Assembly: GCF_000258425.1 (NCBI RefSeq)
Contig: NC_017461.1
Span: forward strand, 960,949-1,024,948
DNA length: 64,000 nt
Direction of reading: 5' to 3'
From: Fervidicoccus fontis Kam940
GTDB taxonomy: Archaea; Thermoproteota; Thermoprotei_A; Sulfolobales; Fervidicoccaceae
Shown here: piece by piece, positions 314-55,923 of the stretch
Layout of the letters: every line of letters starts with the position of its first letter
Numbering within the stretch: the stretch's first letter is position 1
The notes under the pieces: model-generated
Told to the model about the DNA's origin: nothing
The model's database searches: none
Seen by the model: the letters and a program-made list of their open reading frames with translations, nothing else
Translations under genes and position numbers: made by a program

Positions 314-1360
314 TTAAAATAATCTCGACTTATTAACAATAAATCTCTCTCTCGTAGGATGCGCTTCAACTACATATGCTTTTCCTTTCTTATTGATAAG
401 ATCTTTTAATTTTTTTAAATCATCTAAATGAAAGCAAAGAGAATCTCTGCATCTTTGTATCAAACCTTCATCAATAAATTTTTCTATCTCAATATCAGTA
501 CTTTCTGGCTCTAAAATTCCGAATTTGATTAATCCTCCATCAGCCTTTTCATAAATTTTGATGTCATTTTGAGCGGTAATAATAAATCGATTTCTGGTTT
601 GGACGGCATCCTTAAATATAGCAGGACAGAAATGTATAGGTATTTTTAAGCTATGCTTTTTTGCGTATTCAATAACTTTCATGGCGGTTTCTCTGCTTCC
701 ATTAACAACTATACCGTTATCACTGATAACAAATCCGTTTATTCTTAGATTCTTTATATTTGTCTCATTGGCTTCCAGTTCATTTATATTTAAAAAATCG
801 GCTCCAGCTTTATCAAGAAATTCCGCTAATTTTATCATCCACTCTTCTTTCCCAGGTAAAGAAGGAATTTCGACTCCTACTGAAAGAGAAGTAACTTTTT
901 TTGCAATTACTACTTTCTTTTCTATTCCATCTATCGTAGGATGAATTCTAAGCTCATCCAATCCAGCTTTTTCTAGCTTTTTTAACACATCTTCATTAAT
1001 TAAAATGCCATTTGTGTACAAATGGATATGAAAATTGCTTCCAAAATTTTGTTTAAGCAATTCGATTATCTTCGTTGTTCTATCAAAAACTATTAAAGGT
1101 TCTCCGCCAGTTATACTCGCCGATTTTGCTCCAGATCTTTCTATTTCTTCAAAAATTTCTTCGAAATTTTCAATCTTTCTTTCATTTACATATATCAAAT
1201 CCTTATTTCTTCTCAAATAGCTTACTGGGCAATAGAAGCATTTTTCATTGCATAAACCTGTTAAAAATATGACCGCTTTGATCCCAGAAAAACATAAGTT
1301 GCAACCAACTGGAAGCTTATTTCCATATATAGCAGCTATTTCTGACTTTTTAATGCTCAT
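314..1360 (-). CDS. Radical SAM protein related to pyruvate formate-lyase activating enzyme
   Basis: About 348 residues. The [4Fe-4S]/SAM motif CNEKCFYC (three cysteines in CxxxCxxC spacing) is near residues 37-44, and the SAM-contacting GGEP motif is about 45 residues later, so this is a radical SAM enzyme. Extra cysteines (CNLC, about residue 20) sit just before the core motif. The substrate is unknown; it resembles the archaeal group annotated as pyruvate-formate-lyase-activating-like. I chose the ATG at 1360 because it overlaps the upstream stop as TGATG and has an AGAGGTA-type ribosome site six bases before it. A TTG three bases earlier is the alternative. It is translationally coupled to the nucleotidyltransferase upstream, which suggests a joint role. 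Confidence 0.85.
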   Translation of the reverse strand: MSIKKSEIAAIYGNKLPVGCNLCFSGIKAVIFLTGLCNEKCFYCPVSYLRRNKDLIYVNERKIENFEEIFEEIERSGAKSASITGGEPLIVFDRTTKIIELLKQNFGSNFHIHLYTNGILINEDVLKKLEKAGLDELRIHPTIDGIEKKVVIAKKVTSLSVGVEIPSLPGKEEWMIKLAEFLDKAGADFLNINELEANETNIKNLRINGFVISDNGIVVNGSRETAMKVIEYAKKHSLKIPIHFCPAIFKDAVQTRNRFIITAQNDIKIYEKADGGLIKFGILEPESTDIEIEKFIDEGLIQRCRDSLCFHLDDLKKLKDLINKKGKAYVVEAHPTRERFIVNKSRLF

Positions 1361-2085
1361 CAATACTTACCTCTCTCTCTAAGCACCTTCTTTAGAGCAG
1401 GATTTTTTTCTGAAGCTTTTAATACGGCATCTTCTATTGGGTCCTCTGGATATAGCTCTATGTTCAAATAAACCCCAGTTCTCCCTTTTTCATCTCTCCT
1501 TATCAGCACTCTCTCTCTTTCTAATATTGTATCAATGCTTATTTTTAAAAGACTGGCAATTTCTTCTTCTCTACCTATTATAGAGCTCTTCGTATAACCT
1601 TCTTCAATAGGTTTTATGAGCTCAAGCTTTTTGTTTACTCCGGGTACTCTCACATTCTTCATAAGTTGCCCATAGTCTATAATTCCCCCAAAAGAATAGA
1701 ATTCTACTTCCCTCTTCATTAGCTTTGTCAAGGGAAAGCTCACTACTACCTCTTCCTCGGGGTCCAAAATTAGATATGCCTTTGGGGAGTTCGATGGTGT
1801 TGCCTGAACTATTCTCTTGAGAACAGGCAAAATCCCAAAAGATTCAAGGGTTAGCTCAATTACATATGAGGGAATGTCTTGCAGGATTACAATATCTACA
1901 TCACTTTTACTGTGCACATCTCCTCTTGCCACGCTACCGTGCAAAAATGATCTTATGTTCTTAGATTCAAGTATACCCATAATATTTCTAGCTTTTTTTC
2001 TTTTCTCGTTTAGAATTTTTAGTTCTTTTTCACCGTATTCAAAGTAGAATTCATCATAATTTTTCGACACTTTCTCTCTTACCAT
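1360..2085 (-). CDS. Predicted nucleotidyltransferase (DNA polymerase beta superfamily)
   Basis: 241 residues. The superfamily motif GSVARGD...SDVDIVI is at residues 50-67, giving the GS pair and the two metal-binding aspartates (D62, D64). The C-terminal part is not a domain I can name; it contains a helical, possibly DNA- or RNA-binding segment. Length and layout match a small archaeal family of predicted nucleotidyltransferases of unknown substrate. It starts about 40 bases downstream of the split tRNA 5' half and is coupled to the radical SAM gene. Co-transcription with the tRNA half is possible, but nothing in the sequence proves it. Confidence 0.75.
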   Translation of the reverse strand: MVREKVSKNYDEFYFEYGEKELKILNEKRKKARNIMGILESKNIRSFLHGSVARGDVHSKSDVDIVILQDIPSYVIELTLESFGILPVLKRIVQATPSNSPKAYLILDPEEEVVVSFPLTKLMKREVEFYSFGGIIDYGQLMKNVRVPGVNKKLELIKPIEEGYTKSSIIGREEEIASLLKISIDTILERERVLIRRDEKGRTGVYLNIELYPEDPIEDAVLKASEKNPALKKVLRERGKY

Positions 2086-2124: not shown

Positions 2125-2180
2125 GGGAGGAGAGGAGAAGGTCCAAAGCCCCGCATCCTTGGCCGCTAGACTACCCGGCT
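2125..2180 (-). tRNA. Split tRNA-Gln(UUG), 5' half with complementary tail
   Basis: Read on the minus strand from 2180: acceptor strand AGCCGGG (2180-2174), U8 A9, D-stem GUCU/GGAU around a nine-base loop, G26, anticodon 5' stem CGGGG (2153-2149), then loop bases CUUUGGA with anticodon UUG at 2146-2144. No anticodon 3' stem follows. Instead a 17-base pyrimidine tail (2141-2125) is complementary to the leader of the matching 3' half at 48160-48143. The acceptor strand pairs perfectly over 7 bp with the 3' strand encoded there. The predicted cut is after position 37 (2143), between the second and third bases of the GGA bulge. AT-rich promoter-like DNA lies at 2191-2220, up to the stop of the upstream gene. 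Confidence 0.93.
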
Positions 2181-16806: not shown

Positions 16807-16883
16807 TGGCGGGCCCGCCGGGATTTGAACCCGGGACCAACGGGTTAAAAGCCCGCTGCTCTACCTGGCTGAGCCACGGGCCC
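16807..16883 (-). tRNA. tRNA-Lys(UUU)
   Basis: Complete cloverleaf on the minus strand: acceptor GGGCCCG pairs with CGGGCCC, D-arm GCUC...GAGC, anticodon arm GCGGG-CUUUUAA-CCCGU with anticodon UUU, T-arm CCGGG-UUCAAAU-CCCGG, discriminator G, and an encoded CCA (16809-16807). No intron. It is a stand-alone gene between dphB and iorB. Confidence 0.96.
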
Positions 16884-47812: not shown

Positions 47813-47947
47813 GCAAAAGGGGCCGCCGCCGGGATTTGAACCCGGGACCTCCGGATCCACAGTCCGGCGCTCTTCCAGCTGAGCTACGGCGGCCACAACG
47901 TCATTTTCTTCATCGCAACATTTAGCTCTGCGGCGGCCCCCCTTTGC
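47813..47947. repeat. Inverted repeat flanking tRNA-His
   Basis: On the minus strand, GCAAAGGGGGGCCGCCGC (47947-47930) lies 36 bases before the tRNA. It is complementary, with small bulges, to the tRNA 3' acceptor strand plus trailer GCGGCGGCCCCTTTTGC (47829-47813). About 16 bp can form and would compete with the acceptor stem. It looks like an inverted duplication of the tRNA 3' end and trailer. Confidence 0.8.
47821..47894 (-). tRNA. tRNA-His(GUG)
   Basis: Complete cloverleaf: G-1 at 47894, acceptor GCCGCCG pairs with CGGCGGC, D-arm GCUC/GAGC, anticodon arm CCGGA-CUGUGGA-UCCGG with anticodon GUG, T-arm CCGGG-UUCAAAU-CCCGG, discriminator C. The extra G-1 opposite C73 is the usual tRNA-His identity element. 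CCA is not encoded (CCT follows). No intron. Confidence 0.96.
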
Positions 47948-48000: not shown

Positions 48001-48036
48001 CTCATTTCAACCCTTAGGGAGGGCATTAGTTGTGAA
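48001..48036. mobile_element. Possible IS200/IS605 end-like scar
   Basis: The stretch CCTCATTTCAACCCTTAGGG followed by AGGGCATTAGTTGTGAAT parallels the remnant at 22.5 kb, where CCCTAAAGGGCGAGGG is followed by TTTCAGTTGTAAAT. The likeness is partial and there is no transposase. It lies about 60 bases from the split tRNA 3' half. Confidence 0.35.
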
Positions 48037-48080: not shown

Positions 48081-48150
48081 GAGGCAGGAGATTTTTTATG
48101 GTAGCCGGGCGGGGATTCGAACCCCGGTCGCGGGGGATCTCTCCTGCCTC
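48081..48150. repeat. 11-bp inverted repeat around the tRNA 3' half
   Basis: GAGGCAGGAGA lies in the leader (minus strand 48150-48140), and its exact complement UCUCCUGCCUC lies just after the CCA (48091-48081). In one transcript they can pair and enclose the tRNA exon, hiding part of the leader needed for pairing with the 5' half. Confidence 0.85.
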
Positions 48151-48160
48151 CTCTCCTCCC
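48099..48160 (-). tRNA. Split tRNA-Gln(UUG), 3' half with complementary leader
   Basis: Read on the minus strand from 48160: an 18-base purine-rich leader (48160-48143), AGAG (48142-48139), bulge AUC (48138-48136), anticodon 3' stem CCCCG (48135-48131), variable CGAC, T-arm CGGGG-UUCGAAU-CCCCG, acceptor CCCGGCU (48109-48103), discriminator A and encoded CCA (48101-48099). There is no D-arm or 5' acceptor strand beside it. The leader pairs with the tail of the 5' half at 2141-2125. AGAG pairs with CUUU of that half to form the four-base central helix, and two three-base bulges (GGA, AUC) complete a canonical splice site. Confidence 0.93.
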
Positions 48161-48211
48161 TAATAATTTGTTTTATTTTTAAGAATTAAAAATTTTTTCT
48201 ATCATCAACGG

Positions 48212-54356: not shown

Positions 54357-55205
54357 TTGATTTTTCCTTTCTACTCTCAGAGATTTACGTCCTTAAGAAT
54401 TCCAAGGACACCGGGTTTTTACATAAACATGTTTAAAGAGTATTCAAATTTACTTGGGATAGCATTGGGAAAAGAAAATGGTTTAATTGATTTTATGTCT
54501 TTTAACTACAGCCTCATCGAATCCTTAATATGGATAAGATCATTTCAATGGTTAGGAATTCTAGATTCTTCATTTGTTTCAAATCCCTACAGATATGGTG
54601 TTAAATCTGTTAAGATCAAGTATCTTCCAATAGCAAAGTATCTTAGAGAGCTTCCTCAGGAGGAAGCTGGTTGCTACTCACTGCTTTTCTCTTATATTTT
54701 GCCAACTCCGTTCAGAAGCGCGATTTTAATATCTCAAAGCTCAAAAAGTTTGGAGGAAGTTGCAAAAAACCTTTTAGAAAAAGGAAAGGCTGTTGAAAGG
54801 ATGCTAGCAATAGAGTTTCTTCAAAGCCAAAGTGAAGACTTAGTATTTTTAATGAAAATGGCATTTGCGAGTGGGTTCGTCAGGAGAGGTAAGAAAAGCG
54901 ACAAGGGTGGTTATTTTACATATCTCAGAGAGCAGTCAAGGAAACAATGGAAAGAGCATCCATGCTATACCTATTTTCCATTAAATTCAATTTTCATAGA
55001 GCTGGTAGAAAAAGAGATCTACGGAGATGTTGAAGCCTTTCTGAAAAATGAGAAAAGCAGACTTGGCATTAATGAGTATTTAAGTGAAAGAAAAGAAATT
55101 AAAAGCAGAGAAAGACTTATTGATGTTTTATTTAAGATTAAAGAAGATTTTGCGTCGATTTATGAGTATTACACCAATTACTATGATATAAGAATTAATG
55201 AATAA
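54357..55205 (+). CDS. Hypothetical protein between MBL nuclease and XPF
   Basis: 282 residues, mostly helical, not recognised. It starts TTG 54357, two bases after the nuclease gene's stop, and its end overlaps the region of the XPF start. It has no nucleotide-binding or metal motif that I can see. Its place between two DNA/RNA-acting enzymes suggests a repair or processing role, but that is inference. Confidence 0.55.
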   Translation: MIFPFYSQRFTSLRIPRTPGFYINMFKEYSNLLGIALGKENGLIDFMSFNYSLIESLIWIRSFQWLGILDSSFVSNPYRYGVKSVKIKYLPIAKYLRELPQEEAGCYSLLFSYILPTPFRSAILISQSSKSLEEVAKNLLEKGKAVERMLAIEFLQSQSEDLVFLMKMAFASGFVRRGKKSDKGGYFTYLREQSRKQWKEHPCYTYFPLNSIFIELVEKEIYGDVEAFLKNEKSRLGINEYLSERKEIKSRERLIDVLFKIKEDFASIYEYYTNYYDIRINE

Positions 55206-55215
55206 AGGTGAGTAT

Positions 55216-55923
55216 ATGACAAACATAACGTTGCTTATGCCTACTGATGTCATAATGGATGAGAACGAAAAAGCTACTAATCCAGAAATTTTTGAAGGAC
55301 TAATAAAAGGAAAGCTTTCAGTTGCAGTAAAACAGCTGGAAGCCGGAGATTATCTTCTTTTGTCTAAAAAAGGAGAACTTCCCATACTTGTGGAAAGGAA
55401 AACTGCAGAAGATTTTGTTAACAGTATAATAGATGGAAGAATATGGAAGCAGTCCGCAACACTAAAAAAAATCAAAGAGAGGGGGGAAGCTTTACCAGTC
55501 ATTGTTTTGGAAGGCAATCTATCTTATACACTAGAAAAAAGGAAGATTTCTGAAACTGCGATTCTTAGAACGATTGATGAGCTCGTATTAAATAGGGATA
55601 TACCTGTTATTTATACGCTTTCGAAATCTTCGACGATTTCCTGGCTTATCGCAAAAGCGAGATCGCTTGGTAACACTAAAGAAAAAACGGTTTTTATTTA
55701 TAATAAAAAGAAAGCAAAAACTCCTAAAGAAAGAGTGTTGCTTTCTCTTTCAATAATAACTGGTACTCAAACAGCAAGAAAGCTTTTAACAAAGTTTGGT
55801 ACCATTAGAAACATTGCTAATCTTACTGTAGGTGAGTTAATGCAAATTGAAGGTATAGGTGAAGTTAAGGCAAAGAAAATATACGAATTATTTAATTTAA
55901 ATTATGATGAATCAATAAAATAA
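55216..55923 (+). CDS. xpf: XPF/ERCC4-type structure-specific endonuclease
   Basis: 235 residues from ATG 55216, with AAGGTGAG just before it. The ERCC4 nuclease has GDY (D45) and ERKTAED (residues 60-66). Tandem helix-hairpin-helix motifs follow (GTQTARKLLTKFGTIRNI, QIEGIGEVKAKKI). It cuts 3'-flaps and other branched DNA. It lacks a helicase domain, as in crenarchaeal XPF, which usually works with PCNA. No clear C-terminal PCNA-box is seen. Confidence 0.93.
   Translation: MTNITLLMPTDVIMDENEKATNPEIFEGLIKGKLSVAVKQLEAGDYLLLSKKGELPILVERKTAEDFVNSIIDGRIWKQSATLKKIKERGEALPVIVLEGNLSYTLEKRKISETAILRTIDELVLNRDIPVIYTLSKSSTISWLIAKARSLGNTKEKTVFIYNKKKAKTPKERVLLSLSIITGTQTARKLLTKFGTIRNIANLTVGELMQIEGIGEVKAKKIYELFNLNYDESIK

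What the first reader, a model, noticed from the sequence alone, without database searches (positions are those of the whole stretch)
48081..48150. Inverted repeat folds the tRNA 3' half onto itself
The leader segment GAGGCAGGAGA (48150-48140) is exactly complementary to UCUCCUGCCUC (48091-48081) directly after the encoded CCA. In one transcript this 11-bp stem would enclose the exon and cover the AGG and AGAG bases needed for trans-pairing. It could protect the unspliced half, act as a switch between cis- and trans-pairing, or be left over from the event that split the gene.
Basis: partly seen in the sequence, partly recalled or inferred. Interest (0 to 1): 0.7.

Follow-up and report, generated by a model that had tools for sequence, protein, structure and literature searches.

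The report
Self-pairing lid on split tRNA half
In a heat-loving archaeon (probably Fervidicoccus) the glutamine tRNAs are made from separately encoded halves, and the shared 3' half carries a tail that can fold back on the stretch meant for its partner; close relatives keep this lid with matching base changes, which suggests a real cis/trans switch in tRNA assembly, although nothing has been measured.

Summary
The inverted repeat is real: 11/11 bp, window 48150-48140 with 48091-48081, 7 nt after the encoded CCA. It flanks the 3' half of a genuine split tRNA-Gln. The genome has no intact tRNA-Gln, two 5' halves (UUG at window 2180-2143, CUG near 102.1 kb) and one shared 3' half; joined exons give perfect cloverleaves. 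The repeat is not chance: none of 41 other tRNA trailers in this genome exceeds 7 bp. Three sister-genus genomes carry the same kind of lid (11, 11 and 7+6 bp), with two positions changed on both sides. No comparable lid is seen in the other Fervidicoccaceae genera (one doubtful), nine other split tRNA-Gln genomes or 28 cis-intron genes. The split is older than the lid, so the lid is not a scar of splitting. It also outlived a relocation: the 3' half sits beside an XPF-type nuclease gene in relatives but about 7 kb from it here. Predicted folds at 68 C have the lid closed in the lone 3' half and displaced by either 5' half, leaving a 10-nt free toehold. Best reading: a toehold-displaced cis lid on a shared tRNA half. 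Transcript ends, processing and function are untested.

The parts
2143..2180 (-). 5' exon of split tRNA-Gln(UUG), 38 nt, ends ...CUUUGG
   Evidence: joins with the 3' exon to a perfect cloverleaf
2125..2142 (-). trailer of the UUG 5' half: A (third base of bulge GGA), CCU inner helix, U, then CUCCUCUCCUCCC (2137-2125)
   Evidence: sequence; pairs with 48160-48148 in the predicted complex
48148..48160 (-). leader of the 3' half, trans helix GGGAGGAGAGGAG; its first 10 nt (48160-48151) lie outside the lid (toehold)
48140..48150 (-). lid, leader arm GAGGCAGGAGA
48136..48145 (-). bulge-helix-bulge strand of the leader: AGG (inner helix), AGAG (central helix), AUC bulge with predicted cleavage AU^C
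   Evidence: sequence reading; the same arrangement is present as an 18-nt cis intron in outgroup tRNA-Gln genes
48099..48136 (-). 3' exon of split tRNA-Gln (38 nt, CCA encoded at 48101-48099), shared by the UUG and CUG 5' halves
48092..48098 (-). spacer between CCA and lid (TAAAAAA)
48081..48091 (-). lid, trailer arm TCTCCTGCCTC
   Evidence: kept as a pairing partner in three sister-genus genomes
55198..55923 (+). XPF/ERCC4-family nuclease gene; in three related genera a 3' half sits convergently against this gene, here it is about 7 kb away

Best explanation
[quoted passage not shown] In the lone 3' transcript the trailer arm pairs with the leader bases that must form the bulge-helix-bulge with a 5' half, closing the exon in a loop and leaving about 10 leader nucleotides at the 5' end free. 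A 5' half (UUG or CUG) docks on this toehold and displaces the lid by branch migration; this creates the splice substrate and frees the trailer, so that splicing and trailer removal can follow. The lid would keep the G-rich leader from pairing with the exon's C tracts or with wrong partners, and keep the 3' half from being processed until a 5' half arrives. Shown: sequence, complementarity, conservation, synteny. Predicted: folds and displacement. Inferred: transcription through the trailer, order of events, benefit.
For: Exact 11-bp stem beyond chance. In a test of 45 tRNA-Gln loci the three lowest shuffle p-values (0.005, 0.020, 0.020) are this genome and two sister-genus genomes; the third sister-genus genome is at 0.050, just behind one cis-intron control at 0.040. 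The leader GGC[A/T]GG[A/G]GAGA differs at two positions between genera and the trailer differs to match (A-U to U-A, A-U to G-C). The lid persisted although the 3' half no longer adjoins the XPF gene. In G003 the GGGGAGA tract is read in another frame of the XPF tail. At 68 C the lid dominates the lone 3' half and is gone from the predicted complex with six of seven 5' halves, net -13 to -18 kcal/mol. An XPF tree groups the lid-bearing genera (support 1.0).
Against: Only four genomes carry it, three of one genus, and the per-locus p-values are modest when 45 loci are tested. In the sister genus the trailer arm overlaps the end of a convergent protein gene. Nothing shows that the transcript reaches the trailer arm; in G007 a T5 run just before it could end transcription. 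In G006 the predicted CUG complex keeps the lid. Other split tRNA-Gln genes, including shared 3' halves in three Sulfolobales MAGs, have no lid, so it is not required.
Confidence: 0.5

Rival explanations
1. The stem is real RNA but its job is 3'-end metabolism only: it closes the end of the transcript against exonucleases or sets the 3' end for trailer removal, with no role in partner binding.
For: It encloses the exon and CCA in the predicted fold; the spacer length varies (7-12 nt) while the stem is kept.
Against: A plain 3' hairpin would do the same; here the arm matches exactly the leader part needed for trans pairing, and other split tRNA-Gln 3' halves do without it.
Confidence: 0.22
2. 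Coincidence: purine-rich leaders meet pyrimidine-rich trailers by chance, and in the sister genus the match is a by-product of the C-terminal codons of the XPF gene.
For: Leaders are G/A-rich in the split tRNA-Gln genes; the sister-genus arm lies in coding DNA; genus g2 shows a 9-bp C-rich match of p about 0.04-0.17; a 12-nt identity run is not very rare at 63% identity.
Against: In the window's genome the trailer is AT-rich, the arm is its only G+C-rich part and no ORF of 60 aa or more covers it; p about 0.005 or less there; two two-sided changes; frame shift in G003; this genome's XPF ends before the tail.
Confidence: 0.2
3. Relic of the event that split or permuted the gene: the trailer arm is what is left of a 5' half's tail that once lay downstream.
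For: The arm resembles the 5' halves' tails, since both pair with the same leader.
Against: The arm pairs without the GGA bulge that a true 5'-half tail would carry; the split predates the lid (family members and other families have the split without lid); the arm has changed together with the leader.
Confidence: 0.05
4. DNA-level element: terminal inverted repeats of a small mobile unit, or a recombinase site, around the 3' half.
For: The 3' half lies away from the XPF gene in this genome, unlike in three related genera.
Against: No target-site duplication next to the arms; in three genera the 3' half is at one orthologous place, and two of these genera lack the repeat; no second copy of the unit was found.
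Confidence: 0.03

Closest known systems
Split tRNA genes of Nanoarchaeum equitans, with one 3' tRNA-Glu half shared by two 5' halves (Randau et al. 2005; PMC4033280, PMC3491384)
   Same: Separate 5' and 3' halves, complementary G+C-rich leaders, junction at 37/38 for Glu, one 3' half serving two isoacceptors
   Different: No self-complementary trailer on the 3' half is mentioned in the sections read; N. equitans tRNA-Gln joins at 32/33 (PMC3218864, Table 1); its genome was not examined here
Split tRNA-Asp and tRNA-Lys of Desulfurococcales (Chan et al. 2011, PMC3218864)
   Same: Related crenarchaea, canonical hBHBh' motif plus 14-bp G+C-rich stem at the 37/38 junction for Asp
   Different: Different isoacceptors; no cis stem between leader and trailer described in the part read
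cis-intron tRNA-Gln of related Thermoprotei (L007, L008, L101, L116)
   Same: Same intron site and the same BHB geometry
   Different: One transcript; no lid above chance
Toehold-mediated strand displacement (RNA switches)
   Same: A cis stem occupies bases needed in trans, with a free single-stranded docking stretch
   Different: Known mainly from engineered RNAs (own knowledge); searches for it with tRNA halves or trans-splicing in archaea gave nothing relevant

Membership tests
Archaeal split (trans-spliced) tRNA | Halves encoded at separate loci, no intact copy of the isoacceptor | tested here: met
   5' halves at 963.1 kb and 102.1 kb, 3' half at 1009.1 kb; no intact tRNA-Gln among 46 RF00005 matches
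Archaeal split (trans-spliced) tRNA | Complementary leader/trailer and bulge-helix-bulge at the junction | tested here: met
   13-bp helix, CUUU/AGAG central helix and 3-nt bulges GGA and AUC by reading; complex predicted. At 68 C the central helix is predicted for CUG but not for the weaker UUG pairing
Archaeal split (trans-spliced) tRNA | Joined exons give a canonical tRNA | tested here: met
   tRNA-Gln(TTG) and tRNA-Gln(CTG), 76 nt each
Archaeal split (trans-spliced) tRNA | Half transcripts and spliced product seen in RNA | not testable with these tools
   no RNA data available
Toehold/strand-displacement RNA switch | Cis stem sequesters the bases that pair in trans, leaving a single-stranded toehold | tested here: met
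   predicted at 68 C in the window genome and three sister-genus genomes
Toehold/strand-displacement RNA switch | Stem kept by selection (two-sided changes) | tested here: inconclusive
   two positions with changes on both sides between genera, but only four genomes
Toehold/strand-displacement RNA switch | Displacement shown to control the reaction | not testable with these tools
   needs in vitro trans-splicing
Permuted tRNA gene | 3' half directly upstream of the 5' half in one transcript | tested here: not met
   no 5' half near the 3' half; the nearer 5' half is about 46 kb away

The most novel reading that the evidence does not exclude
tRNA assembly in Fervidicoccus and its sister genus includes an encoded strand-displacement step: the shared 3' half is kept shut by its own trailer until a correct 5' half opens it, so that one 3' half can serve two 5' halves and its 3' end is processed only after pairing. 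This would be a natural toehold switch in tRNA biogenesis.
Probability: 0.25. Interest if true: 0.75.

Novelty: new variant of a known kind. Interest (0 to 1): 0.55.

Why it matters
How separately transcribed tRNA halves find each other, and what keeps a half from misfolding or decaying meanwhile, is open. A conserved cis stem that covers exactly the trans-pairing bases makes an ordered assembly step directly testable. The survey also shows that split tRNA-Gln is spread over several lineages of this order, with repeated use of one 3' half by two 5' halves, which the 2011 and 2014 papers read here do not list.

Tried and rejected
The inverted repeat near tRNA-His (47819-47829 / 47930-47940) was checked in relatives and is not conserved. 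The 9-bp repeat 48014-48022 / 48155-48163 is at chance level for 800 bp (own estimate). I tested whether the lid is a general feature of split or intron-bearing tRNA-Gln genes: it is not. I tested whether the sister-genus arm is explained by the XPF reading frame: partly possible, but the tail is an extension absent from this genome's XPF and the frame differs in G003. Split tRNA-Lys 3' halves of the same genomes show no leader-trailer lid by inspection, though they have another conserved trailer motif. MAFFT did not align the trailer arms in register, so pairs were compared by eye and no automatic pair count was made. A bootstrapped IQ-TREE run timed out; FastTree was used. No paper in the held library has both Fervidicoccus and split tRNA.

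Full report
WHAT IS THERE. The window is 64 kb of a 1.319-Mb archaeal genome. Its size, and a same-family relative titled Fervidicoccus sp. ARK-14, suggest Fervidicoccus fontis; that name is inference. On the minus strand, 48136-48099 reads CCCCCGCGACCGGGGTTCGAATCCCCGCCCGGCTACCA, the 3' part of a tRNA with encoded CCA. Neither ARAGORN nor Rfam calls a tRNA there. A matching 5' part, AGCCGGG...GGGGCTTTGG, lies at 2180-2143, and a second one, with anticodon CUG, at 102.1 kb of the same genome. Joined to the single 3' part both give a clean 76-nt tRNA-Gln. No intact tRNA-Gln appears among the genome's tRNA matches. So one 3' half serves two 5' halves.

THE JUNCTION. The 5' tail CUUU-GGA-CCU-U-CUCCUCUCCUCCC faces the 3' leader GGGAGGAGAGGAG-GC-AGG-AGAG-AUC-CCCC. 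This is a bulge-helix-bulge with 3-nt bulges, followed by a 13-bp helix. The same geometry is present as an 18-nt cis intron in outgroup tRNA-Gln genes, such as CUCU-GGC-CCA-AUGUG-UGG-GGAG-AUC in L007.

THE INVERTED REPEAT. 48150-48140 and 48091-48081 are exactly complementary. No shuffled trailer of 500 reaches 11 bp; a gapped score gives p = 0.005. The longest match of the leader to 41 other tRNA trailers of this genome is 7 bp. Of 8526 overlapping 60-nt stretches of the window, 12 reach 11 bp or more; I take these to be the lid, the leader itself and the 5' half's tail, but did not inspect each one. The trailer is otherwise AT-rich.

RELATIVES. Eight genomes of the family are held, in five genera. 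In genus g4 (G003, G006, G007) the leader is G4-5 TTGAGGAGGCTGGGGAGAT. The trailers hold TCTCCCCAGCC (G006 and G007) and TCTCCCC-TG-GCCTCC (G003): 11 bp, 11 bp, and 7+6 bp with a small internal loop. The bases between CCA and the arm, and after it, differ. Against g1 (the window), two leader positions differ (A/T and A/G) and the trailer differs to match. In g3 and g5 no convincing lid is found; g2 has a 9-bp C-rich match of doubtful meaning (p 0.04 to 0.17). In a common test of 45 loci the window genome, G006 and G007 have the three lowest p-values (0.005, 0.020, 0.020) and G003 has 0.050; the lowest of 28 cis-intron controls is 0.040, and the nine other split 3' halves range from 0.060 upward. 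With 45 loci tested these p-values alone are modest; the case rests on the combination of evidence.

AGE AND PLACE. A 3' half lies convergently against an XPF/ERCC4-type nuclease gene in g3, g4 and g5 (domains). In g4 the trailer arm falls into a short C-terminal extension of that gene. In g5 the gene ends 2 nt from the CCA with no lid. In the window's genome the XPF gene (55198-55923) ends in NYDESIK and the 3' half is about 7 kb away, yet has the lid. A tree of XPF separates g1+g4 from g2+g3+g5 with support 1.0. Split tRNA-Gln is found in all five genera and, with 5' halves identified, in several other lineages. The lid therefore most likely arose once in the g1+g4 ancestor, after the split, and moved with the 3' half. 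In g1 and g4 only one tRNA-Gln 3' half was found per genome, serving two 5' halves in g1, G003 and G006; G007 showed one 5' half in a 79% complete assembly. Shared 3' halves without a lid exist in three Sulfolobales-type MAGs, so sharing does not require it.

HOW IT COULD WORK. At 68 C the minimum-energy fold of the lone 3' half has the lid closed in g1 and g4. Without the trailer the g4 leader is predicted to pair with the exon's C tracts. In predicted complexes with 5' halves the lid is replaced by acceptor, anticodon and trans helices in six of seven cases, with a net gain of 13-18 kcal/mol over the separate RNAs. In G006 with CUG the toehold helix forms while the lid stays, which looks like an intermediate. 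About 10 leader nucleotides (48160-48151) lie outside the lid and can dock the 5' half. These are model energies, not measurements; tertiary folding and base modification are ignored.

WEAK POINTS. Transcription through the trailer arm is unproven; in G007 a T5 run sits just before it. The sister-genus arm is in coding DNA. A 12-nt identity run at 63% identity is expected about once in the gene, so that run alone is weak (own estimate). The support comes from the combination: a G+C-rich arm in an AT-rich noncoding trailer in g1, paired changes, persistence after relocation, and absence elsewhere. The number of genomes is small.

KNOWN OR NEW. Split tRNAs, BHB junctions and shared 3' halves are known (PMC3218864, PMC4033280, PMC3491384). 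N. equitans half transcripts have been mapped; [quoted passage not shown] I found no description of a cis stem between leader and trailer of a 3' half, nor of split tRNA-Gln in Fervidicoccales, but subscription journals and databases such as GtRNAdb were not searchable. I file the locus as a split tRNA, and the lid as a new variant of that kind.

Noticed in passing
G000:C1:360836 (+) (L142) and G000:C1:272866-272919 (-) (L098, L194): A second split tRNA in the same genome: tRNA-Lys(CUU), joined near 30/31; 3' halves also split in G003, G004 and G006, cis intron in G001, apparently intact in G002. Joined exons give a clean tRNA-Lys.
   Followed up: partly
trailer of window tRNA-Lys(UUU) at 16807; L098, L144, L146, L195-L197, L201-L203: A conserved motif GGGCTC about 20 nt after an encoded CCACA in both tRNA-Lys genes and one intron-rich GGGCCC tRNA, in three genera; other tRNAs of the genome mostly lack encoded CCA and lack the motif. 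It could pair with the GGGCCC acceptor strand, or mark an old integration site.
   Followed up: partly
47819-47829 and 47930-47940: 11-bp inverted repeat: a second copy of the tRNA-His acceptor 5' strand about 40 nt upstream of tRNA-His; not conserved in relatives.
   Followed up: partly
L099, L104, L107, L108, L125, L127, L129, L131, L136 with L148-L161: Split tRNA-Gln in many Thermoprotei MAGs (Sulfolobales, Ignisphaera, Acidilobaceae, Thermodiscus labels), three of them with two 5' halves and one 3' half found.
   Followed up: partly
window 1360-2085, L012, L013, L018: The UUG 5' half is followed by a nucleotidyltransferase-domain gene starting MVRE or similar in three genera, so its place is probably old.
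   Followed up: no
G000:C1:115573-115689 (L097): Probable initiator tRNA-Met interrupted by two introns.
   Followed up: no
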